DNA of 64,000 nucleotides from contig NZ_QZWH01000003.1 in assembly GCF_003601925.1 (NCBI RefSeq), positions 1 to 64,000 on the forward strand. Direction: 5' to 3'. The notes under the pieces are model-generated. The model was not told where the DNA came from. It saw only the letters and a list, made by a program, of their open reading frames with translations, and searched no databases. Made by a program: the position numbers and the translations under genes. Source of the DNA: Buttiauxella izardii. Lineage in GTDB: Bacteria > Pseudomonadota > Gammaproteobacteria > Enterobacterales > Enterobacteriaceae. Position 1 is the first letter of the stretch. Each line of letters opens with the position of its first letter. Below, piece after piece: positions 32,847 through 63,807 of this stretch.

Positions 32847-32854
32847 TTCTGGTG

Positions 32855-33793
<939 letters not shown>

Positions 33794-35024: not shown

Positions 35025-35087
35025 AGTTTCTCTCCGTTTTGTGCCTGTCGCCTGAGACCACTAATTTTGTCTGGTCTCTTATAAAAT

Positions 35088-36344: not shown

Positions 36345-36346
36345 TG

Positions 36347-37180: not shown

Positions 37181-37181
37181 A

Positions 37182-39570: not shown

Positions 39571-39637
39571 TCTCTAACCTGCAGCGTCAAACGCCATTAC
39601 TTCAAAAATTCATGGGCAAACCAACCGCCCACAATGA

Positions 39638-43262: not shown

Positions 43263-43264
43263 GA

Positions 43265-44347
43265 TTAACGCACCTTCAGAGTAGCAAGGCCGATCAGGAC
43301 CAGCATCAGCGAGATAATCCAGAAGCGCACAATCACACGCGGCTCCGGCCAGCCTTTCAATTCATAATGGTGATGAATCGGGGCCATACGGAAAATGCGT
43401 TGTCCGCGCAATTTGAAAGAACCAACCTGCAAAATCACCGACAGCGTTTCAACCACAAACACGCCGCCCATAATCACTAACAGGAATTCCTGACGCAGCA
43501 GCACAGCGATGGTTCCGAGCGCACCGCCCAGAGCCAGTGAGCCAACATCGCCCATAAAGACTTGCGCTGGATAGGTGTTGAACCACAAGAAACCAAGCCC
43601 TGCACCAACAATCGCGGTGCAGACGATAACTAGTTCACCTGCATGGCGCAGGTACGGAATATGCAGATATTCAGCAAACTTGATGTTACCTGTCGCCCAG
43701 GCAACCAGCGCAAAGCCAGACGCCACCAGCACGGTCGGCATAATCGCCAGGCCGTCGAGGCCATCGGTCAGGTTGACAGCGTTGCCGGTGCCGACGATAA
43801 CAAAGTACGCCAACAGCACGTAGAACAGGCCAAGCTGCGGCATTACGTCTTTAAAGAACGGCACAACCAGCTCGGTGGCTGGCGTTCCTTTTCCTGCGCT
43901 GTACATCGTGAAGGCAACCGCCAACGCGATGACTGACATCCAGAAATATTTCCAGCGGGCAATCAGCCCTTTGGTATCTTTGCGTACCACTTTGCGGTAA
44001 TCATCAACAAAGCCAATGGCACCGTAACCGACCAGCACGAACAGTACACACCAGACATAGGGGTTTGACGGATAAGCCCACATCAACACGGAAATAACGA
44101 TAGAAGTCAGGATCATAATCCCGCCCATCGTTGGCGTTCCACGCTTGCTAAAGTGCGATTCCGGGCCGTCGTTACGCACAACCTGGCCGAAGGAAAGTTG
44201 CTGCAAACGAGCAATCATACGCGGCCCCATCCATAACGAGATGAACAGAGCAGTCAGCAGGCTGACAATGGCGCGAAACGTCAGATACGAAAAGACGTTA
44301 AAGCCGGAATAATATTTGACCAAGTGTTCGGCCAGCCAAACTAACAT
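43265..44347 (-). CDS. mraY: Phospho-N-acetylmuramoyl-pentapeptide transferase MraY
   Basis: It transfers phospho-MurNAc-pentapeptide to undecaprenyl phosphate, making lipid I in the inner membrane. A 360-residue protein with ten hydrophobic segments. Catalytic-site motifs FVDDYRKV (double Asp near 115), [13 protein letters not shown] and the [12 protein letters not shown] histidine cluster are intact. It overlaps the murF end by 7 bp. Confidence 0.97.
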
Positions 44348-45699
44348 GTTCCATTCTCCTGTAATGCGCGTACTACCTGTTCCATGGCGGCACTACGTGA
44401 ACCCTTCACTAAAATGGTAATCATTGAATGCTCTGCGATGAGCGCCTTGAGGCGCACGATTAAAGAAGGCTTATCGGTAAAATGTTCGCCCACTTCAGAG
44501 GCTTGACTGATAATTTCACTCAGTGTGCCTACGCTCAGAACGCAATCAATGCCTGATGCTTTTGCGGCTTCGCCAACCTGGCGATGGCATTCAACAGACT
44601 CGTCGCCCAATTCCGCCATATCCCCGACAACCATCACGCGGAAGCCCGGCATTTCAGACAGCACCTGTGCTGCGGCGGTCATTGACCCCACATTGGCGTT
44701 GTAGCTGTCGTCGAGCAGCAGTTGGTTTTCGGAAAGTTGAATCGGGAACAGACGGCCAGGCACAGCCTTCAGATCGGCAAGACCGGCTTTGACTGCTTCG
44801 AGCGTAGCGCCAACTGCCATAGCCAGCGACGCAGCTGCCAGCGCGTTGGCAATGTTATGTCGACCCGGAAGCGGCAGATTCACGTCGATATCGCCCACTG
44901 GCGTTTTAATCGTGAACTCAGTGCCGTGGGTAGTGATATGCACGTTAGTCGCTGTAAAATCGCTGCCTGCGGCATTCGGCGAAAAGCGCCAGGTTTTACG
45001 CTCGCCGATCGTTTCTTGCCAGTTCAGCCAGTCGTTATTGTCAGCGTTGAGAATCGCGATGCCGTTAGCAGGCAATCCTGCGAAGATTTCACCTTTTGCT
45101 TTCGCCACACCGGCCAGTGAACCAAAGCCTTCAAGGTGCGCTGCCGCCAGGTTGTTGACCAACGCGGCTTCCGGGCGAGTCAGGTTTACCGTCCAGGCGA
45201 TTTCGCCCTGGTGGTTAGCACCCAGTTCAATCACGGCATATTCATATTCTGGTGTCAGACGCAGTAGCGTCATTGGTACGCCAATATCGTTATTCAGGTT
45301 TCCGGCGGTGTACAAGGTGTTCCCGCACTCGCGCAAAATCGCTGCGGTCATCTCTTTAACGGAGGTTTTGCCCGAAGAACCGGTCAGCGCGACGATACGA
45401 GTTGGCACCTGCTGACGAACCCAGGCGGCCAGTTCGCCGAACGCCTGATGCGTATCGGCAACCACCAACTGCGGAACGTTGACGTCCAGCTTACGGCTAA
45501 CCAGTAACGCCCCAGCCCCACCGTTCACGGCATCTTGCGCAAAGTCGTGCGCATCAAAACGCTCGCCTTTCAGTGCAACGAACAGACATCCCGGCGTGAG
45601 TTTGCGCGTGTCAGTGGTGACATCAATAATATCAGCGTCTGCACCGTGTAAATCACCGTGCAGAACAGTGGCAAGTTGGCTCAATGAAACGCGAATCAT
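44341..45699 (-). CDS. murF: UDP-MurNAc-tripeptide--D-alanyl-D-alanine ligase
   Basis: It adds D-Ala-D-Ala, made by DdlB nearby, to complete the pentapeptide. The protein is 452 residues, the E. coli length. P-loop [11 protein letters not shown] lies near residue 107, with the [10 protein letters not shown] motif and the [14 protein letters not shown]-terminal ATP/substrate region. It overlaps murE by 4 bp. Confidence 0.97.
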
Positions 45700-47183
45700 G
45701 CCACAACCCCCAACAGGCGGGCGGCGGTGACGCGATCTGAGTAATCCAGACGGCGTACACCTACAATTTGATAATCCTCATGGCCTTTACCGGCAACCAG
45801 AACCACATCGTTTTCTTTGGCTTGCATGATTGCGTTGGTCACGGCTTCGGCGCGGCCTGAAACCACATGCGCACGGCCTGCATCCAACATGCCCACCAGG
45901 ATATCGGCAACAATCGACTTTGGCTCTTCAGTGCGCGGGTTGTCATCAGTGACCACAACCACATCGGCGTATTGCTCAGCGATGCCACCCATAATTGGGC
46001 GCTTGCCTTTATCGCGATCGCCGCCGCAACCGAACACGCACCACAGCTTGCCGCTACAGTGTAAACGCGCGGCTTGCAGGGCTTTTTCCAGTGCGTCCGG
46101 CGTGTGGGCATAATCCACCACTACCGTCGGTTTGCCTGGTGCGCTGAACACTTCCATACGCCCACAAACCGGCTGCAGGCTCGGAGCGGTTTTCAGCAGT
46201 TCTTCAATCGGGTAATCCAGAACCAGCAGCGTCGCGAGCGCCAACAGCAAGTTGCTGACGTTAAACGCGCCCATCAGGCGGCTTTCAATTTCGCCATCGC
46301 CCCATGAGGAACTGAACTGGATAGTTGCCCCGCCATCGTGATAATGCACGTTGGTGGCTTTCAACCAGCGTCCACGACAGCCTGGCTGCAAATTGTTTTC
46401 CATCGTCACCGCAACCGCGTCAGGTAAACGCGCTAACCAGTTGCGTCCGACTTCATCATCAGCATTGATGACAGCGTGGCCGTAATCGTGTTCGGAGAAC
46501 AACTGCCATTTAGCCGCTTCGTAGCCCGCCATATCACCGTGGTAATCAAGGTGATCGCGGCTCAAGTTGGTGAACACGCTGGCGGCAAATTTCAATGCCG
46601 AAACGCGATGTTGCACCAGGCCATGAGAAGAAACTTCCATCGCGGCAAAGCTCGCGCCCTGCTCAGCAAGGTTAGCAAGCACTTGCTGTACATCGACGGC
46701 GGAACCGGTGGTATTTTCAGTCGGTTTTACGTTACCCAGCAGGCCGTTACCCACCGTGCCCATCACCGCACTGGTTTCGCCTAATAACTGGCTCCACTGC
46801 GCTAACAGTTGAGCGGTAGTGGTTTTACCGTTTGTTCCGGTGACACCCACCAGGCGTAATGCGCTGGAAGGTTCGTGGTAAAAACGCCCTGCCAGAGCAG
46901 AAAGACGTTGATGAAGCTGGCTCAGATAAATAACCGGCACGCCGTGCATTTCACGGATTTCGCCATCAGTTGCTTCCCCTTCAGCTTCAGCAATGATAGC
47001 GGCTACGCCTTGCGCTATTGCCTGCGGGATATATCGACGCCCGTCCGCCTGATGACCTACGATAGCCACAAAAAGGTCGCCCGATGCCGCCACACGGCTA
47101 TCGAGTGTCATTTCTCGCAGTGCTCTCTCCGGCGCTTGCGGCACCCATGGAGCGAGAAGGTCGCGCAAATTACGATCTGCCAC
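45696..47183 (-). CDS. murE: UDP-MurNAc-L-Ala-D-Glu:meso-diaminopimelate ligase
   Basis: It adds meso-DAP as the third stem residue. The protein is 495 residues, the E. coli length. P-loop [15 protein letters not shown] lies near residue 116. The DNPRTEEP motif, which fixes meso-DAP rather than lysine, is present, consistent with a Gram-negative wall. The [10 protein letters not shown] and [15 protein letters not shown] motifs are intact. It overlaps the ftsI end by 14 bp. Confidence 0.97.
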
Positions 47184-48936
47184 CTGATCCCTCTTTTTGA
47201 TTGATTACAAATTCACTTTTTTCACCTGTCGCCAGAGCATCCGGCTCGATGTTCATGGTGCGCAGAACGCCGCCCATGATGGCACCGAACACAGGTGCAG
47301 AGACGGCACCACCGTAATATTTCCCTGCTTGTGGGTCGTTAATCACCACCACCAGAGCGAATCGAGGATTACTTGCTGGCGCAACGCCTGCGGTGTAAGC
47401 AATGTATTTGTTAACGTATTTTCCATCCGGCCCGACTTTTTTCGCCGTACCGGTCTTAATCGCAATGCGGTAGCCTTTAATAGCCGCTTTAACGCCACCA
47501 CCACCAGGCAATGCCACACTTTCCATCATATGTACGACGGTACGAACCAGCGGTTCAGGGAAAATTCTCTCACCAGGAACCGGCGGATCAACCTTCGTAA
47601 TCGACAGCGGGCGATACACGCCGTAACTGCCAATCGTTGCGTAGACTCGCGCTAACTGTAACGGGGTTACCATTAGCCCGTAGCCGAAAGAGAAGGTGGC
47701 CCTCTCTATGTCAGACCACCGTTGTTTTTGCGGATATAAGCCACTGCGTTCTCCGACCAGCCCCAAGTTGGTCGCTTTTCCCAATCCAAAACGTGAGTAA
47801 GTATCTACCAACGCTGAGGAGGGCATCGCTAACGCCAGTTTAGAAACCCCGACGTTACTCGACTTCTGTAGCACCCCGGTAAGGGTCAATTCGCTGTAGC
47901 GCGCCACATCTTTGATCTCATGACCATTGATGCGGTACGGCACGGTATTCAGAACGGTATTTTCACGCACCACGCCACGTTGCAGCGCGGTCATGACCAC
48001 CATCGGTTTAACTGTCGAACCCGGCTCGAAAACGTCCGTAATGGTGCGGTTACGCATCACGTCTTTTGGCGTGCCGCTCAGATTATTTGGGTTATAGGAT
48101 GGGCTGTTTGCCATCGCTAACACTTCGCCGGTGCTCACATCTACCAGCACCGCACTGCCCGATTCGGCTTTGTTGAAAGCCACGGCATTGTTCAGTTCGC
48201 GGTAAACCAGCGCCTGTAAGCGTTCATCAATACTGAGCGCGAGGTTGTGGGCGGCCTGGCTGTCGGTTGAAGAAATGTCTTCAATCACGCGGCCAAAACG
48301 GTCTTTACGCACAATGCGCTCGCCCGGTTGCCCGGTCAGCCATTTATCAAAGCTCTTCTCAACGCCTTCAATGCCCTGGCTATCGACGTTTGTGAAGCCA
48401 ATGAGGTGAGCAGTGACTTCGCCCGACGGGTAATAACGACGAGATTCCTGACGCAGGTGAATGCCAGGAAGTTTGAGTTTTTTGATGTAGTCGCCGATAT
48501 CAGGATTGACCTGACGGGCGAGATAAATGAAGCGACCTTTCGGGTTACTGTTAACGCGGGAAGCGAGTTGATCGAGAGGGATTTTCAGAGCGTCAGCCAG
48601 CGCTTTCCAGCGGTTATCCAGCGTAATGCCACCGGCATCATGCAGCTCTTTCGGGTCAGCCCAAATCGCATTCACTGGCACGCTGACCGCCAATGGACGG
48701 CCTGCACGGTCGCTAATCATGCCGCGAGAAGTAGAAACTTCCTGCACACGGAGGGAACGCATATCCCCCTGGCGAACCAACATGTCTGGCGCGATGATTT
48801 GCAGCCAGGCAACGCGCCCCAACAGGAAAACCAGCGCCAGCAAAATGCAACCGCAAAGCAACGCAAAACGCCAACTTACAAAGTTGGCCTGTTCTTCCTG
48901 GCGTTTCGGTTTAAGCGTTTTTGCCGCTGCTCTCAT
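47170..48936 (-). CDS. ftsI: FtsI (PBP3), septal peptidoglycan transpeptidase
   Basis: The class B penicillin-binding protein that cross-links septal murein with FtsW. The protein is 588 residues, the E. coli length. It has a short cytoplasmic tail, a membrane helix near 24-45, a pedestal domain ([19 protein letters not shown]) and a transpeptidase domain with S307-T-V-K310, S359-S-N and a KTGTAKK box. All active-site motifs are intact and I see no insertion near the YRIN segment (residues 334-337) of the kind linked to reduced beta-lactam affinity. It is 15 bp after ftsL. Confidence 0.97.
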
Positions 48937-48951
48937 CAGTCACGCGATTCC

Positions 48952-49317
48952 TTATTGCTGAACTACGATGTTTTCCTGCGATGGGTCGACATGCTGCAAC
49001 TGCAGCTTTTCCGTCGCGACCCGCTCCACTCGGCTATGATCGCCCAGTGCGTTTTCTTCCAGAATCAAGTTACGCCATTCGATATCCAGCGCATCACGCT
49101 CCACCACCATTTGCTCACGCTGTGCGGTAAGCAGACGGGTATGGTGCGCGGTGGTGACAACAAAAATGGCGGTGACGATAATGGCGGTGAACAAAATCAA
49201 TGGCAGTTTCCCGTGGCGCAGTAAGTCACCACCAATCACCGATGGCAGAGCATGGCGCTCGCCACTGCTCAATTGACCGGTTACTTTGCTTAGGGTTTCC
49301 GCCACTTTATTGATCAT
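48952..49317 (-). CDS. ftsL: FtsL, bitopic divisome protein
   Basis: Part of the FtsQLB complex that activates FtsWI. The protein is 121 residues, the E. coli length. It has a basic cytoplasmic tail, a membrane helix at about 38-57 ([20 protein letters not shown]) and a periplasmic coiled coil ([30 protein letters not shown]). The start overlaps the rsmH stop by 4 bp. Confidence 0.95.
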
Positions 49318-50255
49318 GCGTTCGTCCTTTCGGCGATGCGCAGTACAGAACTACGCGCGCGCGGGTTTTCCGCCACTTCTTCTTCACCCGGCATCATTTT
49401 GCCAATAGATTTTAAATATCTGCCGCCGAGCTTGTTCAACTGCGCTTCAGTCATTGGAATACCCGCTGGAACCTGTGGTCCACGGGTGTTTTCACGCATA
49501 AAGCGCTTAACAATTCGGTCTTCCAGCGAGTGGAAACTGATAATGGATAAGCGACCACCAGGCGAAAGAGTTTCAATCGAACCTTTAAGCGCCTTTTCAA
49601 TCTCTTCAAGTTCGCTGTTGATCCAGATACGGATAGCCTGGAACGTGCGCGTCGCCGGGTGTTTGAACTTGTCTTTTACCGGCATTGCCGCTGCCACCAC
49701 TGTTGCCAGCTCTTTGGTGCGAGTCATTGGCTGTTCGCGGTTGCGCTCGATAATGGCGCGCGCGATACGCTTGCCAAATTTCTCTTCACCGAAGGTTTTA
49801 ATCACCCAGGCGATGTCGGCTTCGTCAGCGCTTAGCAACCATTCTGCGGCAGACTGACCGCGAGTCGGGTCCATACGCATGTCCAGCGGGCCGTCACGCA
49901 TAAAAGAGAATCCACGTTCGGCGTCGTCAAGCTGCGGGGAAGAAACGCCAAGATCCAACAGGATGCCGTCGATTTTACCCAACAAATCACGTTCGCGTGC
50001 GTACTCGGCTAGTTCAGAGAAAGGTCCGTGAATAATGGAGAAGCGCGGATCATCGATCGCCTTTGCAGCCTCAATGGCTTGCGGATCACGGTCGATAGCC
50101 AGCAGGCGCCCTTCTGGTCCCAGTTGGGAAAGAATCAAGCGAGAATGACCGCCACGGCCAAAGGTGCCATCGATGTAGATGCCATCCTGACGAATGTTAA
50201 GACCGTTCACGGCCTCATCTAGCAGCACCGAAGTATGTTTAAAATTTTCCATCAT
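49314..50255 (-). CDS. rsmH: 16S rRNA m4C1402 methyltransferase RsmH (MraW)
   Basis: It N4-methylates C1402 in the ribosomal decoding centre using SAM. The protein is 313 residues, the E. coli length. The SAM-binding motif [14 protein letters not shown] lies near 29-42, with [20 protein letters not shown] and the [16 protein letters not shown]-terminal motif. It is the second gene of the mra operon, 3 bp after mraZ, the usual dcw arrangement. Confidence 0.97.
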
Positions 50256-50258
50256 TAT

Positions 50259-50717
50259 TTATAGTGACAAGTCCTGCAGACGGTCCGACAAGGTTGTCGT
50301 CGTAGCCTGCTCAGCGTCGATGTCTTCCTTGACCTGTTGATGCCAGGTCGTTTCATCCCACAGTTCAAACTTATTGAACTGCCCAACCAGCATCACTTCT
50401 TTGGTTAGCCCGGCGTGTTGGCGCAAAACTGGCGCAAGCAACAATCGCCCGGCGCTATCCATCTGACATTCACTGGCATGCCCGAGTAACAATCGCTGCA
50501 CGCGACGCTCAACCGGGTTCATGCTCGACAGACGAGCTAGCTTTTGTTCAATAATTTCCCACTCGGGAAGGGTATAAAGCAGCAGGCATGGGTGATGGAT
50601 GTCGATGGTACAGACCATCTGACCTTCAGAGGTTTCGACAAGCTTTTCCCGGTAACGGGTAGGTACGGCAAGCCGCCCTTTGCTGTCGAGATTGACTAAT
50701 GTTGCCCCACGGAACAT
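50259..50717 (-). CDS. mraZ: MraZ, transcriptional repressor of the dcw cluster
   Basis: A 152-residue DNA-binding protein with two AbrB/SpoVT-like swapped-hairpin domains, each with a DSKGR-type motif ([15 protein letters not shown] near the N-terminus, [13 protein letters not shown] in the second half). The start at ATG 50717 ([13 protein letters not shown]) gives the E. coli length; the 18-residue upstream extension would run across the operator. It represses its own operon by binding TGGGN repeats, which lie 29-53 bp upstream of the start. Confidence 0.96.
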
Positions 50718-50745
50718 GCCAGCCTCACCCTTAAATTCCCCTTTC

Positions 50746-50770
50746 CACCACTTTGACCCACAAAATCCCA
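50746..50770 (-). promoter_or_regulatory. MraZ operator (TGGGN repeats)
   Basis: On the minus strand TGGGA, TGGGT and TGGTG follow each other at an exact 10-bp period (50766-50770, 50756-50760, 50746-50750), matching the MraZ-binding TGGG-N6 repeat array reported upstream of E. coli mraZ. The third box is imperfect (TGGT). Confidence 0.85.
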
Positions 50771-50778
50771 CCTAAAGG

Positions 50779-50808
50779 AGTTTACGGAGCGGAGGAAAAC
50801 CTTGTCAA
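50779..50808 (-). promoter_or_regulatory. mra (dcw) operon promoter
   Basis: TTGACA (complement of 50803-50808) and GTAAAC (complement of 50780-50785) are separated by 17 bp, directly upstream of the MraZ repeats. The -35 is perfect and the -10 weak, resembling the E. coli Pmra. MraZ bound to the repeats would sit over the transcription start. Confidence 0.75.
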
Positions 50809-51248
50809 GCAAGCTACAACGCTGATGGAAATAAATTTCATCTCCTAAGCGATTGATAAATGACTGGCGTGAAAAGGCGCTACATCCACGATGCAAAATT
50901 AACGTTATGAATATTTGAAAGAAAAAAGATCAATAAACACAAATATCGTTAAATCGACTGAAAACCGGACAGTTAAAATATGAAGTGTTCAGTTTGCGAC
51001 GCGGTCGGCATTTTAAGGTATTTCGTGGAAGGTTAACAGCGCCAGATGCAGGCTAAGCGCGGCCTGGCGAGAGAGTTTGTTGAGTAACAGTTCGCTATTG
51101 TTTAATTATCCGTCATTTTTACACTTTGCTATGTAACAAAATAATTCAAACAGCGGAATTATATCAATTATGGAATTAAGGATTCCTCTAATACAAATGA
51201 AAAATAATTACCTGAATAAACAAGGGAATTAAAAGAAGATAATTCTTA
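50809..51248. other. cra-mraZ intergenic region
   Basis: About 440 bp of strongly A/T-rich DNA between the cra terminator and the mra promoter. I see no ORF with a ribosome-binding site, no repeat family and no RNA that I can name. E. coli also has a long gap here. Confidence 0.6.
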
Positions 51249-51249
51249 A

Positions 51250-51275
51250 TAAAAAATGGCAGCCGTAACTGCCAT
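51250..51275 (-). terminator. Terminator after cra
   Basis: ATGGCAG (51256-51262) pairs with CTGCCAT (51269-51275) around a 6-nt loop. The A run at 51251-51256 gives a U run on the minus-strand transcript. It begins 7 bp after the cra stop codon. Confidence 0.85.
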
Positions 51276-51281
51276 CATTGG

Positions 51282-52286
51282 TTAGTGGCGACTCAAACTA
51301 CCGCGACGATATAGATTACGACGAATTCGCGTTAACCCGGCCTTCGGCTTGCGAGGCTCATCAAGGCTTGCCAGTACCAATTCCAGCACGCGCTCCGCAA
51401 CATCGCGGTGGCGCTGCGCAACCGCCAGCACCGGGCATTGCAGGAAATCGAGCAATTCATTATCACCGAAAGTCGCAATCGCCAGCTCAGATGGCAACTG
51501 CCCTTCGCGACGCAGTGTTACATCCATAACACCTTGTAATAATGCAAATGAAGTGGTGTAAAGCGCCTGTGGCATCGGATGCGTTTCCAGCCATTTATCA
51601 AAAAGCTGTGCTGCGGCTTCGCGTTCATAGCTGTTGGCATATAAGAAATGCACTTCACGCGGATCATCTTTCCAGGCAGTACGGAAACCTTGCTCACGCA
51701 GATAACTGACTGAAAGTTCAGGCAATGCACCGAGGTAAAGTACCGTTTCAGCCGGGAAGGTGCGTAGCTCACTCGCCAGCATTTCCGCATCTTCCTGATC
51801 TGCGCCGACAACGCTGATGAAGTTTTCACGATCTAATGCCCGGTCGAGCGCAATAATAGGGAAAGGATCGTTCGCCCAGCGCTGATAGAAAGGATGTTCA
51901 GGTGGCAATGAAGTTGAAACGATAATGGCATCAACCTGGCGCTGCAACAGGTGCTCAATGCAACGCATTTCGTTATCAGGCTGATCTTCAGAGCAGGCAA
52001 TCAGCAACTGATAACCACGCTGGCGAGCCTGGCGCTCCAGATAATTAGCGATACGGGTATAACTGGTGTTCTCAAGGTCTGGAATAACTAATCCGATAGA
52101 ACGCGTCCGCCCGGCGCGAAGTCCTGCGGCCACCGCATTCGGGTGGTAGTTATGTTCGCGTACAACCGCCATGACTTTCTCAACGGTTTTATCGCTAACG
52201 CGATACTGCTTTGCCTTACCGTTGATGACGTAGCTCGCCGTGGTGCGCGAAACTCCAGCCAGGCGCGCGATTTCATCCAATTTCAC
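51282..52286 (-). CDS. cra: Cra (FruR), catabolite repressor/activator
   Basis: A LacI-family regulator of carbon flux that represses glycolytic and activates gluconeogenic genes, released by fructose-1-phosphate. The protein is 334 residues, the E. coli length. The N-terminal helix-turn-helix [25 protein letters not shown] and hinge [21 protein letters not shown] are followed by a periplasmic-binding-type effector domain. The locus is between ilvH and mraZ as in E. coli. Aconitase and PDH genes elsewhere in this window belong to pathways it regulates. Confidence 0.97.
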
Positions 52287-52404
52287 AGTAGCCCCTTATT
52301 TAGGATTTCCATAACCATACCCTGGTCATGGTTTCATTTTTATCATCTAAGCGCAGAATAATACCTCGGGCAACCGCTTTTGCTGGCAGTTGTTGCGCAA
52401 TTTG

Positions 52405-52440
52405 CAAAAAAAAACCCGGTTCAGGTTACCGGGTTAGTTT
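52405..52440 (-). terminator. Terminator after ilvH
   Basis: AACCCGGT (52413-52420) pairs with ACCGGGTT (52428-52435) around a 7-nt loop. Nine A residues on the left give a U run in the minus-strand transcript. It is 24 bp after the ilvH stop. Confidence 0.88.
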
Positions 52441-52458
52441 TTAAGCGCCCTTAACAGG

Positions 52459-52950
52459 CTAGCGCATGATCTTATCGCCGCGAGAAACGCCGACAATTCC
52501 CGAACGCGCCACCTCGACAATTTTAGCCACTTCACGAATGGTGTTCAGGAAAGCATCCAGTTTGTCGCTGGTTCCGGCGAGTTGAACTGTGTAAAGCGTC
52601 GGCGTCACATCAATGATTTGCCCACGGAAGATTTCCGCATTGCGTTTCACTTCTTCACGCCCGTAACCGCTCGCCTGCACTTTCACCAGCATGATTTCAC
52701 GCTCGACATGTGAGCCCAGCACCAACTCGCTGACACGCAGCACATCCACCAGTTTGTGAAGTTGCTTTTCGATTTGCTCCAGAACTTTGGCATCACCCAC
52801 AGTCTGAATAGTCATACGCGAAAGGGTTGGATCGTCAGTCGGTGCGACCGTCAGGCTTTCGATGTTGTAACCGCGCTGAGCGAATAAGCCAATCACTCGG
52901 GACAATGCCCCGGACTCATTTTCGAGTAATACAGATAATATCCGGCGCAT
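52459..52950 (-). CDS. ilvH: Acetolactate synthase III regulatory subunit
   Basis: The small subunit of AHAS III, conferring valine feedback inhibition and full activity on IlvI. The protein is 163 residues from ATG 52950 ([23 protein letters not shown]), the E. coli length; the 10-residue upstream extension overlaps ilvI and is rejected. The N-terminal ACT domain carries the valine site and Gly14-type turn; the C-terminal domain follows. It begins 2 bp after ilvI. Confidence 0.96.
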
Positions 52951-52952
52951 AA

Positions 52953-54677
52953 TCAGGTTCTCTCCGTTTTGCTTAACCACATCTCATCCATACCGCCGCC
53001 ACGGATTTGCATTGGGTACACATGCTCAGTGCCATCAACAGTGACATCAACAAACACAAGGCGCTGATTACGCACGGCTTCCAGCGCTTCAATCAGTTTG
53101 CTTTCCAGTTCTTGCGGTTCGCTGATACGGATCCCTACGTGCCCGTAAGCTTCTGCAATTCGCACGAAATCAGGTAAAGATTCCATGTAAGACTGAGAAT
53201 GGCGGCCTGAATAAATCATATCCTGCCACTGCTTCACCATGCCGAGATAGCGGTTGTTGAGGTTCAGCACCAGCACCGGCAAACCATATTGCAGCGCGGT
53301 GGAAAGCTCCTGGATATTCATCTGAATACTGCCATCGCCCGTCACACAAACCACTGTTTCTTCCGGCAATGCCATTTTCACGCCAAGGGCTGCTGGCAGG
53401 CCGAAGCCCATGGTGCCAAGGCCGCCGGAGTTAATCCAACGGCGAGGTTTATCAAAGGTGTAATAGAGTGCGGCGAACATCTGGTGCTGACCCACATCAG
53501 ACGTGACATACGCCTCGCCGTTGGTCAGGCGGTAAATAGTTTCAATGACCGCCTGCGGCTTAATTTTGTCGCTGGCTCTGTCAAACTCAAGACACTGGCG
53601 TGCGCGCCAATGGTCAATTTGCTGCCACCAGTCACGAATATCATCACAGCCCTGCTGCGGCGCTTCTTGTGCCAGCAATTCCAGCATTTGCTGAAGAACC
53701 TGCTTTGCATCGCCCACAATCGGAATATCAGCGCCAACCGTTTTGGAAATTGAAGTGGGATCGATATCAATGTGCAACACGGTCGCATTTGGGCAGTACT
53801 TCGCCAGATTGTTCGTCGTACGGTCATCGAAACGCACACCGACCCCGAAAATCACGTCAGAGTTGTGCATCACCATATTGGCTTCGTAAGTTCCGTGCAT
53901 CCCCAACATACCCAGCGCCTGGCGATGTGTGCCAGGGAATGCGCCCAAACCCATTAAAGAGGAGACAACGGGAATATTGAGTTTCTGAGCAAGCTCAAGC
54001 AATTCATCATGGCAGGAAGAGGTGATCGCCCCGCCGCCGACATACATCACTGGCTTTTTCGCGGCCAGCAGCGTTTGCAAAGCACGCTTAATTTGCCCTT
54101 TATGACCCTGAGTTGTTGGGTTGTAAGAACGCATGCTGACGGTTTCAGGGTAGCTATAAGGCAGTTTGTTTGCCGGGTTCATGATGTCTTTCGGCAAGTC
54201 CACGACTACCGGGCCTGGGCGACCGCTCGCCGCCAGCCAGAAGGCTTTTTTGATAATACCGGGAATATCTTCGGCCTGTTTAACCAGGAAACTGTGCTTC
54301 ACTATCGGACGCGAAATCCCCACCATGTCGCATTCCTGGAAGGCATCGTAACCAATCAGCGAGGTCGCGACCTGGCCTGACAGCACAACCATGGGAATAG
54401 AGTCCATATAGGCGGTGGCAATGCCGGTAATCGCATTGGTCGCACCTGGCCCGGATGTCACCAGCACAACACCAACTTCCCCCGTTGCCCGCGCAAGGCC
54501 ATCAGCCATATGCACGGCCGCTTGTTCATGGCGCACCAGCACATGATCAATGCCGCCAATGGTATGAAGCGCATCGTAAATATCGAGTACCGCGCCTCCG
54601 GGATAGCCGAATACATACTTAACGCCCTGATCGATTAACGATCGGACGACCATCTCGGCTCCTGACAACATCTCCAT
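52953..54677 (-). CDS. ilvI: Acetolactate synthase III catalytic subunit
   Basis: A ThDP-dependent enzyme condensing pyruvate with pyruvate or 2-oxobutyrate, the first shared step of valine/leucine and isoleucine synthesis. The protein is 574 residues, the E. coli length. The catalytic Glu is in [13 protein letters not shown] (near 49). The ThDP motif [29 protein letters not shown] lies in the C-terminal third. GGAGG precedes ATG 54677. In E. coli the operon is activated by Lrp and antagonised by leucine. Confidence 0.97.
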
Positions 54678-55021
54678 GGTTTGCCTCCAGGCTTACGTGT
54701 TTGACCGACCGCAGAAATCATTTCCGCTAAGTCGTTGAGGCAGGTTGTTGCGCCCTGCATTTTATTTTTAGTAATCCGCCTAACATAACCGCTGAAAATC
54801 AGGCAATCAATTGCCAATCTTCAGGCGCAGCAAGAGAGTTTGCCTGCCGATACTGCAAAACCCTTTTCTGGCGGAGTTTAGCTCTGAACATAAGCAAAGA
54901 TTATGATTGAAAATGTTATGAAAGATTGATTCGCAGGTTAAATCTAATTAACGCAGGGTTTATTGAACGATCAGGAGAGGAAACTCAAAAGGTGCGACAG
55001 CGTAAAAATCTATAAAATGGA
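54678..55021. other. ilvIH upstream regulatory region
   Basis: About 340 bp of non-coding DNA between the leuO terminator and ilvI. In E. coli the corresponding region holds several Lrp sites and the ilvIH promoter. Here it is A/T-rich toward the leuO side (54890-55020), with a small GGCAA/TTGCC dyad near 54810, but I cannot place individual Lrp sites with confidence. Confidence 0.55.
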
Positions 55022-55066
55022 TAAAAAAAAGAATAACCGAGTAGCTTTCACTACCCGGTTTAAAAT
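55022..55066 (-). terminator. Terminator after leuO
   Basis: ACCGAGTAG pairs with CTACCCGGT (one mismatch) around cttTCA, and the A-rich run at 55022-55033 gives a U-rich tail on the minus-strand transcript. It is 18 bp after the leuO stop. Confidence 0.75.
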
Positions 55067-55083
55067 TGATTAACTGACTGAAT

Positions 55084-56028
55084 CTATTTACTGCATACCG
55101 TTGTCAGTAACTTTTCCATCCACTGATGGCCTTTATCGCGTCCGGCGGCTTCGTGCCAGGATAAATAACAAGTAGAGATATTATCTTTCAGCGGTAACGG
55201 GAATATTTGCAAATGCAGTGAATCAGCAAACTCTTCAGCTAACCAGCGCGGGGCGATAGCGACAAGGTGAGTCTGCGACACGACATTTAAAACACTGGTC
55301 ATCGCCATCCCTTGATAAGAAATGCAGGCTTGCTTCTCAACAGACTGATACCAGGGAGCACTAAATGAAGCAAAACGCTCAAGCGACACAACCGCATGCT
55401 TCTCGTTATAAATGTCGTCTTCCGTAAGCGGTTTAATTAAACGTGGATGCTTATTACTGGCGACCAGTACCATTTCATCTTCAAACAGCGGTACGCAAGT
55501 AAACTCCGGACGACGAAATTCTGTGTAACTAATAACAAACTCCGTCTCCTGGTAACGTAACTGATGTTCAATATCTTTATTCAACGCAGATTTGAAGAGT
55601 AACTGAATACCCGGCGCAAAGCGTTTCATATTATTAAAGATGACTGATGTCAGTAGATTATCCAACGGACTGCTGACACAAATGTTAAATACACGTTCGC
55701 TGCTGGCGGGTTCAAAACCAGCGCCAGGTAGTTCGTTCTGAACTAACTGCAACGCCTGACGTATCGCACCGAATAACTGGTAAGCGCGCGCTGTAGGCTG
55801 TATGCCACGGCCATAGCGCACAAACAGTTCATCATTGAACATGATTTTCAAACGCGCGACCGCATTGCTCACCGCAGGCTGAGACATTCCCAAAGACTGG
55901 GCGGCACGGGTAATATTCTGCACTTGCATCACAGCATCAAATACAGTTAATAAATTCAAATCGACAGAACGTAGTTGAGGTTTAAACCCATCATGAACTG
56001 CCGGTTGTTCTACATAATTATCAGACAT
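55084..56028 (-). CDS. leuO: LeuO, LysR-type global regulator
   Basis: A 314-residue LysR-family protein, the E. coli length, starting at ATG 56028 with GTGGAG before it; the longer in-frame ORF adds 22 unsupported residues. The N-terminal extension differs from E. coli, but the helix-turn-helix ([43 protein letters not shown]) is near identical; the C-terminal effector domain has diverged moderately. LeuO counteracts H-NS silencing and controls many loci. It is divergent from leuLABCD over a long A/T-rich gap, as in E. coli. Confidence 0.95.
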
Positions 56029-56200
56029 GACTAACTCCACTAAGTTGTCGATTCCTTTTGCGCAGATGACACTGCGAATTTCCCTTAATATCACTTGCTA
56101 AGCAGAACATGTTGATTAACGCAATCAAAAACACTATTTAAAATATCCAAATATAAATTTCTAAATTAGCATTATTCAATGGTCCAACAGGTCGTTAGCG

Positions 56201-56253
56201 ACTGGCAGGCCGGGTGAAGCGATTGAATCTTCAATGATTCAATTCTTGCCAGT
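56201..56253. promoter_or_regulatory. Nested inverted repeat near the leuO promoter side
   Basis: Outer arms ACTGGCA (56201-56207) and TGCCAGT (56247-56253) enclose inner arms ATTGAATC (56222-56229) and GATTCAAT (56236-56243), all perfect. There is no T run for a terminator. It lies 173-225 bp upstream of leuO. Its role is unknown; it could be a regulator site, a leader stem-loop or a small RNA. Confidence 0.5.
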
Positions 56254-56518
56254 TGGTTTCTAAAGCGTGCTTATCAAATCACAATATGACTGAACACACA
56301 ATAATTGGCCCAGTGAATAATATATTAAGTATCGATAACATCCTCATTTTAGAAACAAACGTTCTACTCATATTTTGAGAATAATAAAAGATGATAAATT
56401 CCTAAAATAGAAACGAAATGATGAATAAACCCTCCAAATCATAACCATGGTGAATACAACGACCGCTTAACATATTGTTTTTAATTGTTTCTGATGATTT
56501 CAATCTTATGCAGCAAGG

Positions 56519-56544
56519 TAAGAAGTATTTTTTCATACTTCTTA
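56519..56544. promoter_or_regulatory. Perfect 10-bp palindrome upstream of the leu promoter
   Basis: TAAGAAGTAT (56519-56528) and ATACTTCTTA (56535-56544) flank a 6-nt spacer, centred about 105 bp upstream of the leu -35 box. A/T-rich dyads of this kind are typical for LysR-type regulators such as LeuO. No experimental consensus is matched by me. Confidence 0.45.
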
Positions 56545-56636
56545 TATATATTATGAAACATGAATATCTCAGCACATATAGCTAAGAAACCTTCTCAACT
56601 TATGGTTCCTAAAAGGGTGTCTAAAGCAATAGAGTG

Positions 56637-56665
56637 TTGACACAGCAAACCAGATCAAGTACCAA
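56637..56665 (+). promoter_or_regulatory. leu operon promoter
   Basis: TTGACA at 56637-56642 and TACCAA at 56660-56665 with 17-bp spacing, 36 bp upstream of leuL. The -35 is perfect and the -10 is weak, as in the E. coli leu promoter. Transcription would start near 56672. Confidence 0.7.
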
Positions 56666-56700
56666 TAAATGCATAACGAAATTCACTTGGGGCTTGAAAC

Positions 56701-56784
56701 ATGATTCGCAGCAACCGCCTACTAGGTCTACTACTAAACGCAACTTCATTGCGCGGTAGACTGGTGGGCGAAATCAAGCGTTGA
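56701..56784 (+). CDS. leuL: leu operon leader peptide LeuL
   Basis: A 27-residue leader peptide (M-I-R-S-N-R-L-L-G-L-L-L-N-A-T-S-L-R-G-R-L-V-G-E-I-K-R). Leucines 7, 8, 10, 11 and 12 are all encoded by the rare CUA codon, the control codons for leucine-dependent ribosome stalling. GGGG precedes the ATG by 8 bases. The mRNA after the control codons folds into alternative hairpins and then the attenuator. It corresponds to E. coli LeuL (28 residues), which has the same clustered leucines in a different surrounding sequence. Confidence 0.93.
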   Translation: MIRSNRLLGLLLNATSLRGRLVGEIKR

Positions 56785-56797
56785 TTCAAGCCACCAG
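56761..56797 (+). promoter_or_regulatory. leu leader hairpin (alternative structure)
   Basis: CTGGTGG (56761-56767) pairs with CCACCAG (56791-56797), and inside it AATCAA (56772-56777) pairs with TTGATT (56781-56786). In addition GCGCGG at 56751-56756 can pair with CCGCGC at 56809-56814, the 5' arm of the terminator. These are the competing pairings needed for attenuation. Confidence 0.75.
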
Positions 56798-56801
56798 ACA
56801 G

Positions 56802-56832
56802 AAAAAACCCGCGCCACTGCGCGGGTTTTTTT
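56802..56832 (+). terminator. leu attenuator
   Basis: CCCGCGC (56808-56814) pairs with GCGCGGG (56819-56825) around a 4-nt loop, flanked by AAAAAA on the left and TTTTTTT on the right. It lies between leuL and leuA. Confidence 0.95.
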
Positions 56833-56874
56833 ATGCTCGTAGCAAGGGCCCCTAAGACGAGAAAGGACCACAAC

Positions 56875-59539
<2,665 letters not shown>

Positions 59540-59541
59540 TC

Positions 59542-60942
59542 ATGGCGAAAACGTTATATCAAAAATTGTACGATGCTCACGTCGTTTATGAAGCCGTAGA
59601 CGAAACGCCGCTGCTGTATATCGACCGTCATCTGGTTCATGAAGTGACTTCGCCACAGGCGTTTGATGGCCTGCGTGCGCACAAGCGCCCGGTGCGTCAG
59701 CCTGGCAAAACTTTTGCCACCATGGATCACAACGTTTCTACGCAGACTAAAGACATCAACGCTTCCGGCGAAATGGCCCGCATTCAGATGCAGGAGTTGA
59801 TGAAAAACTGCAAAGAATTCGGCGTTGAATTGTATGACCTGAACCACCCATTCCAGGGCATCGTTCACGTGATGGGGCCGGAGCAAGGTATCACTTTGCC
59901 GGGCATGACCATCGTGTGCGGCGACTCCCACACCGCGACCCACGGCGCATTTGGCGCACTGGCATTTGGTATCGGTACTTCTGAAGTTGAACATGTGCTG
60001 GCGACGCAAACCCTGAAACAGGGCCGCGCCAAAACCATGAAGATTGAAGTGACCGGCACTGCGGCACCTGGCATCACCGCGAAAGACATCGTGCTGGCGA
60101 TTATCGGCAAAACCGGCAGCGCTGGCGGCACCGGGCATGTGGTGGAATTCTGCGGTAGCGCGATTCAGGCGCTGTCGATGGAAGGCCGCATGACGCTGTG
60201 TAACATGGCTATCGAAATGGGTGCCAAAGCAGGCATCGTGGCACCAGACGAAACCACCTTCAACTACGTGAAAGGCCGTCTGCATGCACCGAAAGCAGCC
60301 GACTGGGACAACGCAGTGGCGTACTGGAAAACCTTCAGCACTGACGAAGGCGCGAAATTCGACACCATCGTCACGCTGGACGCCGCAGAAATCGCACCGC
60401 AAGTGACCTGGGGCACCAATCCAGGCCAGGTGATTTCCGTCACTGAAAATATCCCGAATCCAGAATCGTTCGCCGACCCGGTAGAACGCGCCTCTGCCGA
60501 GAAAGCGCTGGCGTACATGGGCCTGAAACCAGGTATTCCATTGACCGAAGTCGCCATCGACAAAGTGTTTATCGGTTCTTGCACTAACTCACGCATCGAA
60601 GATTTGCGTGCTGCGGCAGAAATCGCCAAAGGCCGTAAAGTGGCTCCAGGCGTGCAGGCGTTAGTGGTTCCAGGTTCTGGCCCGGTAAAAGCACAGGCAG
60701 AAGCAGAAGGCCTGGATAAGATTTTCATCGAAGCCGGTTTTGAATGGCGTTTGCCTGGCTGCTCGATGTGCCTGGCGATGAACAACGACCGTCTGGAACC
60801 GGGCGAGCGTTGTGCCTCCACCAGCAACCGTAACTTTGAAGGCCGTCAGGGCCGCGGTGGTCGCACACATCTGGTTAGCCCGGCAATGGCCGCCGCTGCC
60901 GCTGTATCCGGTCACTTTGCTGACATCCGCACGTTGAAATAA
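59542..60942 (+). CDS. leuC: 3-isopropylmalate dehydratase large subunit
   Basis: With LeuD, isomerises 2- to 3-isopropylmalate using a [4Fe-4S] cluster. The protein is 466 residues, the E. coli length. Cluster cysteines lie in [14 protein letters not shown] (near 347) and [12 protein letters not shown] (near 407 and 410); aconitase-type [12 protein letters not shown] is present. AAAC lies directly before leuD's gap of 11 bp with its own Shine-Dalgarno. Confidence 0.97.
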
Positions 60943-60953
60943 GGGAAAACACC

Positions 60954-61559
60954 ATGGCAGAGAAATTTATCCAACATACCGGCCTGGTCGTTCCGCTGGA
61001 TGCCGCAAACGTTGATACCGACGCAATCATTCCTAAGCAGTTTTTGCAGAAAGTCACGCGCACCGGTTTTGGCGCACATCTGTTTAACGACTGGCGTTTT
61101 CTGGACGACGCAGGCCAAAAACCTAATCCAGAATTTGTGCTGAACTTCCTGGAGTTTAAGGGCGCTTCTATTTTGCTGGCACGCGAAAACTTCGGCTGCG
61201 GTTCTTCCCGTGAACACGCGCCATGGGCGTTGACTGATTACGGTTTCAAAGTGGTTATCGCACCAAGTTTTGCGGATATCTTCTACGGTAACTCATTCAA
61301 CAACCAGTTGCTGCCGGTGACGTTGAGCGAAGCAGAAGTGGATGAGCTGTTTAAGCTGGTTGCGGCAAATCCGGGGATTAAGTTTGTGGTCGACCTGGAA
61401 TCGCAAACCGTGATTGCAGGCGAGAAAAGCTATTCGTTTAACATCGATACTTTTCGCCGCCACTGCATGTTGGAAGGTCTTGACAGCATCGGCCTGACGC
61501 TGCAACACGAAGGTTCAATTTCCGCTTACGAGCAGAAGCAACCGGCGTTTATGCGTTAA
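60954..61559 (+). CDS. leuD: 3-isopropylmalate dehydratase small subunit
   Basis: The swivel-domain partner of LeuC. The protein is 201 residues, the E. coli length. [13 protein letters not shown] and the substrate-binding loop [15 protein letters not shown] are intact. It is the last gene of leuLABCD. No ordinary hairpin terminator follows: ERIC element 2 begins 14 bp after the stop, and the next gene, yggN, is convergent and belongs to a distant region in E. coli. Confidence 0.97.
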
Positions 61560-61573
61560 TAAACAGCAAGTCT

Positions 61574-61700
61574 TATACCCAAAATAATTCGAGCTGCATC
61601 GCGGCGGCAAGTGTTCGAGGCCCAGGGAGCTTACATAAGTAAGTAACCTGGGCGAGAGCACGAAGCCAACAAAGAGGCAGCTTGAAGAATGAAGGGTATT
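61574..61700 (+). repeat. ERIC element 2, at the leuD/yggN synteny junction
   Basis: A 127-bp imperfect palindrome from TATACCC to GGGTATT, with the central ERIC motif cttacataagtaagtaacctggg. It starts 14 bp after the leuD stop and its last two bases are the first two read in the yggN stop codon (TTA at 61699-61701 on the plus strand). It joins genes that are far apart in E. coli. Confidence 0.95.
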
Positions 61701-62415
61701 ACTTCAAAGTCTCAACCAGCCCTTTGCGCTGCCCCTCCAGCGTCACCACTTTGCTACAAACATCGCGGCCAAACTGCTCGAAATCTTTTTCCTGGTTCTT
61801 CCACTCATTTTGAATCGAAGTCTGTAACCCGCCGAGGCTGCCCAACACGCCTTGCAGCGGATTACCACCACCTTTCAGAACCGCTTTCGCACCCATTTCG
61901 TTGATGCTGTCCTGCAAGATGCCGCCCATCGCCTGATTCACCAGTTGCTGCCCTTCGGAGCGCACTTGATCAATCGCTTTATAATGGAAGGTCAAACCAT
62001 CCTGGCGAGTCTCGATAATCCGGTTCATCTGCTGTTTCAATTGCGCGTCGAGTTTCGTCAGGCGACCGCGCATATTGCTGCTCTCACCCACTTCCTGAGC
62101 GACGATTTTATCCAGCGCAACGCGGCCTTTTTCGACTCGAGCCAATGCGCCGTTGTTGATCCAAGGAAGATCGCTACGCAACGCTTGCTGATAGTTCACC
62201 GCCAACTGGCGCTGCGTTGCGTTTAATGTGTGTGGCTTGCCGTTAAATTGCAGGCTGCCATCCGGGGCAATAACCAAATTGCCATTCTCGCCCACAACCT
62301 GAACCGATTGCGGATTGATTACCACGTCATCGCGAGGAGTGACGCTGCATTTATAGTCGGCTTGCGCCTGCATCGCGGTGAGCAACAAAACGCCCATCAG
62401 AGCCTTACGAATCAT
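61699..62415 (-). CDS. yggN: YggN, DUF2884 family periplasmic protein
   Basis: A 238-residue exported protein with no known function. It has a signal peptide (MIRKALMGVLLLTAMQAQA, cut before DY). Two cysteines (YKCSV near the mature N-terminus and DVCSKVV near the C-terminus) could form a disulphide. The middle is helical (ESSNMRGRLTKLDAQLKQQMNRIIETR). It is close to E. coli YggN over its full length and likewise ends with LK. The stop codon abuts ERIC element 2. In E. coli it also lies downstream of trmB-yggL. Confidence 0.9.
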   Translation of the reverse strand: MIRKALMGVLLLTAMQAQADYKCSVTPRDDVVINPQSVQVVGENGNLVIAPDGSLQFNGKPHTLNATQRQLAVNYQQALRSDLPWINNGALARVEKGRVALDKIVAQEVGESSNMRGRLTKLDAQLKQQMNRIIETRQDGLTFHYKAIDQVRSEGQQLVNQAMGGILQDSINEMGAKAVLKGGGNPLQGVLGSLGGLQTSIQNEWKNQEKDFEQFGRDVCSKVVTLEGQRKGLVETLK

Positions 62416-62483: not shown

Positions 62484-62608
62484 TATACCCAAAGATTTCG
62501 AGTTGCAGGAAGGCGGCGACGCAGTGAATCCCCAAGAGCTTACTTAAGTAGGTGACTGGGGTGAGCGAGGAAAGCCAACGCACGTGCAGCTTGAAAGATT
62601 AGGGTATA
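62484..62608 (+). repeat. ERIC element 3, behind yggL
   Basis: A 125-bp copy from TATACCC to GGGTATA with the internal motif agtgaatccccaagagctta, closest of the three to the published ERIC consensus. It ends 2 bp from the yggL stop codon, so it forms the start of the trmB-yggL 3' untranslated region. Confidence 0.95.
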
Positions 62609-62610: not shown

Positions 62611-62937
62611 TCAATCCCACCAGACATCAAACAGCTCGCTAGTGCGAACATCTTCAGCCTTGTGATCTTCAAGCCATTTGCGCACCAGAGCCTGATGCTC
62701 TTCGGTGCATTTGCCGATTTCCTGCAGACAGATTAAGCCTTCCCAGGAAAGGTGGCCGCCGCCATCAAAAGCGAGGCCATTTTTATCGATAACTTCATCA
62801 ATGAATTCATCAACGATTTTATCGATTTGTTCTTCGGAGGTGCCTTCCGGGAAACGCCATGCAACAGAGAACCCCACTTCCTGGAATTCGTCGATGTGCA
62901 TTTTCTTACGCAAACGACGGCTACGATTAATTGCCAT
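62611..62937 (-). CDS. yggL: YggL, DUF469 family ribosome-associated protein
   Basis: A 108-residue protein ([32 protein letters not shown]), nearly identical in length and sequence to E. coli YggL; the longer in-frame form (start 62967) overlaps trmB. It has a basic N-terminus, an acidic middle (EEQIDKIVDEFIDEVID) and a conserved SELFDVWWD tail. The family has been reported to associate with ribosomal particles; its role is not settled. The start shares one base with the trmB stop (TAATG). Confidence 0.93.
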   Translation of the reverse strand: MAINRSRRLRKKMHIDEFQEVGFSVAWRFPEGTSEEQIDKIVDEFIDEVIDKNGLAFDGGGHLSWEGLICLQEIGKCTEEHQALVRKWLEDHKAEDVRTSELFDVWWD

Positions 62938-63656
62938 TACTTTACCCTCTCGAACATTAAGTCCCATACGCCGTGACCAAGACGATGGCCACGTTGTTCA
63001 AATTTGGTCACCGGACGCGAATCCGGGCGTGGTACGTAGTCGTTACTCTCCGACTGGTTTTGATAACCGTCGATAGAGGACATCACTTCGAGCATGTGTT
63101 CCGCATAAGGTTCCCAATCGGTCGCCATATGGAACACACCTCCCAGTTTCAGTTTGCTTTTTACAAACTCGGCAAACGGCACCTGAACGATACGGCGCTT
63201 ATTATGACGCGCTTTGTGCCACGGATCAGGGAAAAAGAGCTGAACCATGGATAAAGAATTGTCAGGAACCATTTTTTGCAGCACTTCAACCGCGTCGTGA
63301 CACATCACGCGCAAGTTCTCAACGCCCTCTTCATGAGCGGTTGCCAGGCACGCGCCCACGCCTGGTGAGTGCACTTCAATGCCTAAAAAGTTCTGCTGTG
63401 GATTAGCTTTTGCCATTGCCACCAGCGACGTGCCCATACCAAAACCGATTTCCAGCGTGACTGGCGCTTCGCGGCCAAACAGCTCGGCAAAATCAACAGG
63501 CGCGTCTTGATATTCAACGCCCATCACCGGCCAATAGTTTTCCAGTGCGAATTCCTGGCCCTTAGTCAGGCGGCCCTGGCGGCGCACAAAACTACGAATC
63601 CGGCGCATTGCGCGGCCTTCTTCATTAAATTCCGGTGAGATGACGTCATTTTTCAT
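62937..63656 (-). CDS. trmB: tRNA (guanine-46-N7)-methyltransferase
   Basis: It methylates G46 in the variable loop of tRNAs using SAM. The protein is 239 residues from ATG 63656 ([23 protein letters not shown]), the E. coli length. The SAM motif is [30 protein letters not shown] is the tRNA-binding/catalytic signature. It is translationally coupled to yggL and divergent from mutY with 151 bp between the starts. Confidence 0.96.
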
Positions 63657-63807
63657 GGTGTTCAGGCTTTCGTTAGTGTTCGGGAAACGGGCATTATCCA
63701 AAGTTAATGGTGAGAAGCAAGCACCAGAAAGTTCCGGTTTACAGTACGGAGTCGTCTGTGCTGGAATCAGCCCCCTAATTTATATTTTTATCGGATGGCC
63801 AGGCACA

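What the first reader, a model, noticed from the sequence alone, without database searches (positions are those of the whole stretch)
61560..61701. ERIC element sits exactly on a genome-order junction between leuD and yggN
Left of the ERIC the gene order is that of the E. coli 2-min region, ending in leuD. Right of it is trmB-yggL-yggN/mutY, a 66-min locus in E. coli. Only 14 bp separate the leuD stop from the ERIC, and the ERIC touches the yggN stop codon, so neither flank keeps its usual downstream DNA. ERIC copies elsewhere could have recombined to make an inversion or translocation. That ERIC caused the event, rather than inserted later, is inference.
Basis: partly seen in the sequence, partly recalled or inferred. 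Interest (0 to 1): 0.7.

Follow-up and report, generated by a model that had tools for sequence, protein, structure and literature searches.

The report
Old chromosome inversion junction, later ERIC
The short repeat at this spot most likely did not cause the gene-order change: the genus carries an old flip of about a third of the chromosome around the replication origin, and repeats of this kind dropped into its junction afterwards, apparently more than once.

Summary
Confirmed: an ERIC element (about 61576-61698) fills the gap between leuD and yggN, which joins two loci 1.62 Mb apart (through oriC) in E. coli. It is no assembly error: 12 of 12 genomes of the genus (Buttiauxella, by named relatives) have the junction and the reciprocal one, setA><hemW. 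Together they fit one inversion of the oriC-containing segment from yggN to setA. In three genomes with the chromosome in one contig its arms differ by 8-29 kb.

ERIC as cause is not supported. Four of 12 genomes have leuD><yggN without ERIC, two with just 41-54 bp and one hairpin; 10 of 12 reciprocal junctions have no ERIC. Outgroups mostly lack ERIC at the ancestral sites (0 of 22; 1 of 61). Junction-A ERICs fall into at least two, probably three, sequence groups, pointing to repeated later insertion.

Unexpected: the same yggN-hemW interval is an endpoint of at least four further reciprocal origin-spanning inversions in other enterobacteria (partners rluA|djlA, mutT|secA, yacL|acnB, hemL|fhuB), without ERIC at the six junction pairs examined. 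These partners lie near the mirror position on the other replichore. Whether this interval breaks more often than others is not shown.

The parts
60954..61559 (+). leuD, last gene of leuABCD; terminus-side flank of junction A
   Evidence: 86% to K-12 LeuD; stop at 61557-61559
61560..61575 (.). 16 bp left of the ERIC; no terminator hairpin left, whereas the four relatives without ERIC keep one in this gap
61576..61698 (-). ERIC element, inserted after the inversion; best-scoring strand minus (nearly palindromic)
   Evidence: nhmmer 61575-61699; RNA fold of the gap -64.6 kcal/mol, z -9.5; ERIC-free sites in G010, G011
61699..62415 (-). yggN; origin-side flank of junction A
   Evidence: 75% to K-12 YggN
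62487..62605 (-). second ERIC, between yggL and yggN; same best-scoring strand
   Evidence: nhmmer
62611..63701 (-). yggL and trmB, collinear with K-12 66.8 min
1..61560 (.). block collinear with K-12 134.5 to 78.8 kb, ending in leuD

Best explanation
The junction is one end of a single, old, nearly symmetric inversion of the oriC-containing chromosome segment (about 1.5-1.6 Mb, endpoints in the gaps setA><leuD and yggN><hemW). It is shared by all 12 genus genomes held and was followed by separate, later insertions of ERIC elements into the short convergent 3'-3' gap that it created. Shown: both junctions in 12 of 12 genomes, arm lengths in three, ERIC-free junctions, distinct ERIC lineages. 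Inferred: the break arose during replication, at two forks equally far from oriC, by joining with little or no shared sequence or through small terminator or REP palindromes. The TA beside the yggN stop codon is a plausible ERIC target, and in the window's lineage the ERIC hairpin took the place of the shared terminator.
For: Both junctions in 12 of 12 genus genomes, three of them with the chromosome in one contig. The near outgroup G075 keeps both ancestral adjacencies (setA><leuD 44 bp; yggN><hemW about 87 bp); L038 and L041 keep yggN><hemW, the only one tested there. Arms A-oriC / B-oriC: G003 797/778 kb, G005 759/730 kb, G009 788/780 kb, with dif near mid-chromosome. ERIC absent at A in G003, G005, G010, G011 and at B in 10 of 12. 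ERIC at setA-leuD in 0 of 22 and at yggN-hemW in 1 of 61 readable outgroup loci. Junction-A ERICs: five genomes 93-98% alike; G007 and G008/G009 only 68-73% to those, below the median own-genome copy (74-78%); G007 and G008/G009 82% to each other while their nearest own-genome copies are 85-87%. Fitch on the tree: inversion 1 change, ERIC at A 3 changes, root state 'absent'; on the protein tree, with 7 genus genomes, ERIC at A 2 changes, root 'absent'.
Against: G008 and G009 carry an ERIC at both junctions, as an ERIC-mediated event would leave; but the trees place them inside the genus (G008 and G009, G009), and their two ERICs are only 81-83% alike. Support inside the genus is modest (66-100), and the two trees differ in which genome branches first (G011, G005; both ERIC-free at A). 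G007 sits inside the lineage of the first ERIC type, which needs a replacement or exchange there. An ERIC exchange followed by loss at both sites in most lineages cannot be excluded formally. The sequence that really recombined is not preserved.
Confidence: 0.93

Rival explanations
1. Homologous recombination between two inverted ERIC copies, one at setA-leuD and one at yggN-hemW, made the inversion.
For: ERIC lies exactly on junction A in 8 of 12 genomes and at B in 2 of 12; the genome is ERIC-rich (41 listed matches).
Against: 4 of 12 ERIC-free A junctions, 10 of 12 ERIC-free B junctions; ERIC lineages at A differ; ERIC at the ancestral sites in only 0 of 22 and 1 of 61 outgroup loci; in six genomes of other lineages that broke the same interval no ERIC lies within 600 bp 3' of yggN or hemW.
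Confidence: 0.04
2. Recombination between other short palindromic repeats (REP/BIME units or the CCCTCACCC/CCCTCTCCC terminator-like repeat) at both ancestral gaps made the inversion. This can be the mechanism inside the best explanation.
For: REP-like units fill yggN-hemW in L038 and L039, and a CCCTCTCCC palindrome lies at setA-leuD in the near outgroup G075. REP-like units lie at junction B of the window's genome and at A of G003 and G005. CCCTCTCCC is 0.618/kb in yggN-hemW gaps against 0.017/kb in the rest of the same loci, but in 7 of 52 genomes only, and the rest is not limited to intergenic DNA.
Against: The CCCTCTCCC palindrome of G075's setA-leuD gap is not in its yggN-hemW gap; the tightest junctions hold just one hairpin each.
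Confidence: 0.3
3. Assembly artefact or translocation without inversion.
For: The window's genome is in 91 contigs.
Against: 12 of 12 assemblies agree, three of them with the chromosome in one contig; both junctions have the orientation that one inversion predicts.
Confidence: 0.01

Closest known systems
Symmetric inversions around the replication origin (cited in PMC12863080 as Eisen 2000 and Mackiewicz 2001; survey PMC9584773; passages seen)
   Same: Inter-replichore, oriC-centred, replichore balance kept
   Different: PMC9584773 reports large within-species inversions flanked by the same repeat on both ends; here no shared repeat was seen at the two junctions in most genomes
Inversion hotspots and breakpoint re-use in Yersinia (Darling 2008, PMC2483231; passages seen)
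   Same: Endpoints used repeatedly, symmetry favoured
   Different: That is within one genus; here one interval is an endpoint in several genera
ERIC/IRU/RU-1 elements (PMC2229807, PMC10969869; passages seen)
   Same: 127-bp palindromic element, TA at its ends, mostly intergenic, strong RNA fold
   Different: Nothing unusual in the window's copy; the copy in G007 carries an internal insert of about 70 bp

Membership tests
ERIC element | About 127 bp with conserved core and palindromic ends | tested here: met
   125-bp match to a profile of own-genome copies (this copy included); fold z -9.5. That the profile is ERIC rests on the recalled consensus; no library search named it
ERIC element | Insertion at TA, judged against an empty site | tested here: inconclusive
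   ERIC-free G010 and G011 end in TTTTTA before the yggN stop and most ERIC-bearing gaps show GGGTA there, but the left flank has decayed
oriC-symmetric inversion | Two reciprocal junctions with inverted orientation | tested here: met
   leuD><yggN and setA><hemW in 12 of 12 genomes
oriC-symmetric inversion | Endpoints equally far from oriC on opposite replichores | tested here: met
   Arm differences 19, 29 and 8 kb in G003, G005, G009; oriC placed by mnmG, so inferred
Repeat-mediated inversion | Same repeat, inverted, at both junctions | tested here: not met
   For ERIC: at both junctions in 2 of 12 genomes only, and these copies 81-83% alike. For REP-like or terminator palindromes the test is inconclusive

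The most novel reading that the evidence does not exclude
The yggN-hemW interval is a reused chromosome breakpoint: in at least five lineages it became one endpoint of an independent, reciprocal, origin-spanning inversion whose other endpoint lies near the mirror position on the opposite replichore (K-12 59, 79, 111, 134 and 173.5 kb). This would point to a site-specific cause such as fork pausing, or a permissive operon boundary at a fixed replication time, rather than a mobile repeat.
Probability: 0.5. Interest if true: 0.6.

Novelty: new member of a known kind. Interest (0 to 1): 0.4.

Why it matters
It shows how a mobile repeat can look like the cause of a rearrangement when it only colonised the scar: a single genome suggests ERIC-mediated inversion, twelve genomes show ERIC coming later. 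The side result, one interval serving as endpoint of five separate near-symmetric inversions, gives a concrete site at which models of replication-linked inversion can be tested.

Tried and rejected
Assembly error: rejected, 12 of 12 genomes agree. Translocation: rejected, both junctions fit one inversion. ERIC-mediated exchange: rejected. L041, titled 'uncultured Buttiauxella', as an in-genus member with ancestral order: it groups with L038 (support 1.0, with G075 next to them; it joins L038 and L039 with 67), so it is treated as outgroup.

Weak points. The adjacency controls are biased: the loci are anchored on yggN and hemW, so a break further out appears as 'not found', not as 'broken'. 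Partner positions were sought only in K-12 stretches 0-244 kb, 3.042-3.120 Mb and 4.592-4.642 Mb, which favours finding symmetric partners. The partners in G124, G115, G067, G107, G127, G025, G032, G078 and G034 stayed unresolved. G034 had been labelled undecided and was pruned before the count; the recount includes it. The ERIC profile comes from Buttiauxella copies and may miss distant ERICs in outgroups. The third fold missed the intended junction and is not used. One search timed out in the tree step; its alignment was used for a FastTree tree. Literature; no report of this junction or of the yggN-hemW interval as a hotspot appeared in those listings (one search listed two papers naming yggN, not opened; most subscription journals are not in the library).

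Full report
What is there. leuD ends at 61559 and yggN, on the other strand, ends at 61699. The 139 bp between are 16 bp plus an ERIC that abuts the yggN stop codon. A profile built from 30 of the genome's own matches, this one included, places it at 61575-61699. The window's genome gives 41 listed matches to the query at E <= 0.001; two are pieces of one place, and the list is not exhaustive. As RNA the gap folds at -64.6 kcal/mol, z -9.5. A second ERIC lies at 62487-62605 and a third at 26750-26874. In chained matches window 1-61560 follows K-12 134519-78847, and 61698-64000 follows K-12 3100903-3103202.

Which organism. YggN is 94-97% identical in eight named Buttiauxella loci (L031-L037, L042), and the held set has 12 genomes of the window's genus. 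Eight of the 11 others are identical over the tested 1.3 kb to those named loci. So the genus is Buttiauxella.

The reciprocal junction. E. coli SgrR finds its counterpart on contig C22 of the own genome. There the order is polB-araDAB-araC-yabI-thiQPB-sgrR-setA><hemW-rdgB-yggU-yggT-yggS-yggR, with 69 bp between the setA and hemW stop codons. In K-12 setA faces leuD, and hemW lies behind yggN with ansB and yggM between. One inversion of the segment yggN...oriC...setA gives both observed junctions in the observed orientations. All 12 of 12 genus genomes have both.

Symmetry. With oriC placed at the 5' end of mnmG (in K-12 oriC starts 111 bp from mnmG), the arms A-oriC and B-oriC are about 797 and 778 kb in G003, 759 and 730 kb in G005, and 788 and 780 kb in G009. 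In these three the chromosome is one contig. An exact dif site lies 49.2, 51.6 and 50.5% of that contig away from oriC on the side of junction A. In K-12 the two breakpoints lie 825 kb (yggN) and 795 kb (setA/leuD) from oriC. So the inversion is symmetric to within 8-29 kb and left replichore balance almost unchanged.

ERIC came later. At junction A, ERIC is present in 8 of 12 genomes (G000, G001, G002, G004, G006, G007, G008, G009) and absent in four: G010 and G011 have 41 and 54 bp with a single hairpin, G003 and G005 have a hairpin and REP-like units. At junction B, ERIC is present in 2 of 12 (G008, G009). The junction-A ERICs of G000, G001, G002, G004 and G006 are 93-98% alike. The G007 copy, with an internal insert, is 68-71% like those and the G008/G009 copies 70-73%, below the median own-genome copy (74-78%). 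G007 and G008/G009 are 82% alike, while their nearest own-genome copies are 85-87%. This means at least two, probably three insertions at A. On a 28.6-kb nucleotide tree parsimony gives one change for the inversion and three for ERIC at A, with absence at the root. Supports inside the genus run from 66 to 100 there, and the protein tree (7 genus genomes) puts G005 instead of G011 first; both lack ERIC at A, and the root state is again 'absent'. G007 sits inside the lineage of the first ERIC type, which would need replacement or exchange there. In outgroups, ERIC is at setA-leuD in 0 of 22 loci where both stops could be read (6 of the 28 loci looked at were not readable), and at yggN-hemW in 1 of 61 (L055, a 4.8-kb gap that also holds ansB).

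How it most likely arose. Shown: the breaks fell in short convergent gaps between stop codons and no marker gene at the junctions was lost. Inferred: two forks at equal distance from oriC broke and rejoined crosswise, or small terminator/REP palindromes recombined. REP-like units lie at yggN-hemW of L038 and L039, and a CCCTCTCCC palindrome at setA-leuD of G075, but the yggN-hemW gap of G075 does not hold that palindrome. In five ERIC-bearing genomes (G000, G001, G002, G004, G006) the leuD-side hairpin is gone, and the scan found no terminator between 61560 and 61701. The ERIC hairpin may now end both transcripts; this is inference.

An unexpected recurrence. In other enterobacteria the same yggN-hemW interval is an endpoint of different inversions, with both reciprocal junctions seen in six genomes: rluA|djlA in G086, L092 and L102 (K-12 about 59 kb; in L092 and L102 other DNA, yggM included, lies between yggN and rluA), mutT|secA in G072 (111.0 kb; the yggN-mutT half also in L044-L046), yacL|acnB in G053 (134.3 kb), hemL|fhuB in G058 (173.5 kb). 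No ERIC lies within 600 bp 3' of yggN or hemW in these six. From K-12 coordinates the four partners lie about 775, 827, 850 and 889 kb from oriC, against 825 kb for yggN and 795 kb for setA/leuD. In G086, chromosome in one contig, the arms are about 700 and 649 kb.

How widespread. In a sample of 119 family genomes of 118 genera, 72 have YggN at E <= 1e-40, and 71 of these also have HemW at E <= 1e-80. By the coordinates 52 of 71 keep the two within 8 kb and 19 do not (two of the 19 are Buttiauxella). Of these 19, six (G000, G001, G072, G086, G053, G058) have the resolved inversions above. G013 and G119 have yggN beside fau, and G118 and G109 have 63-94 kb between yggN and hemW on one contig: other kinds of change. 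In nine the partner stayed unresolved. In seven of these nine (G124, G115, G067, G107, G127, G025, G032) hemW lies 94-197 kb from leuD on one contig, as an inversion of this kind would leave; G078 has hemW about 9 kb from leuD but in another orientation, and G034 gives no link. On a protein tree of 79 tips the 27 broken tips need nine changes; without G034 it was 26 of 78 tips and eight changes, against a mean of 22 for shuffled labels. Neighbouring adjacencies such as trmB-mutY (76 of 76 found, 3 not found) and yggR-yqgF (50 of 50 found, 29 not found) show no break, but this control is weak because a break there would appear as 'not found'. The five distinct reciprocal pairs are solid; that this interval is hotter than other operon boundaries is not established.

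Known background. Symmetric inversions around the origin are reported as the dominant form of bacterial structural variation and often have repeats at their ends (passages of PMC9584773, PMC12863080). Repeated use of endpoints is known in Yersinia (passages of PMC2483231). ERIC is a 127-bp MITE-like element with TA at its ends and, inserted at gene 3' ends in Yersinia enterocolitica, can alter transcript levels (passages of PMC10969869 and PMC2229807). The inversion is therefore a new example of a known kind.

Noticed in passing
window 62487-62605: A second ERIC between the yggL stop and a terminator-like hairpin at 62471-62452; with the first it flanks yggN, both scoring best on the same strand. 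ERIC matches lie at the same place in L033, L034 and L035, not in L031.
   Followed up: partly
L224/L225, L092/L232, L102/L229, L305/L306, L295/L296, L299/L300: The yggN-hemW interval is an endpoint of four further reciprocal origin-spanning inversions with other partners.
   Followed up: partly
L289, L291: In G013 (same hemW coordinates as the genome of L052, Entomohabitans) and G119 (as L059, Shimwellia) yggN is joined to fau, which in K-12 lies about 44 kb away on the same replichore.
   Followed up: no
L037 10719-10916 (junction A of G007): ERIC with an internal insert of about 70 bp beside a retained but decayed terminator.
   Followed up: no
L031 and L032: Both titled Buttiauxella agrestis ATCC 33320, yet they differ (ERIC against REP-like units at the junction; separate branches). 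One is probably mislabelled; L032 is itself marked UNVERIFIED_ORG.
   Followed up: partly
L043: Titled Citrobacter freundii M-21, but it has the yggN-mutT order of the Atlantibacter loci L044-L046.
   Followed up: no
G003:C2:91482-91509: A dif-like site with 2 mismatches on the second contig, perhaps a plasmid.
   Followed up: no
yggN-hemW gaps of 52 genomes: A CCCTCTCCC/GGGAGAGGG palindromic repeat is 0.618/kb there against 0.017/kb in the rest of the loci, in 7 of 52 genomes.
   Followed up: partly
window 14623-14737, 28984-29051, 35016-35108, 56687-56832: Rfam matches: tp2, STnc40, PssrA (Plasmid-encoded Shigella sRNA A, here in a chromosomal block) and the leu leader.
   Followed up: no
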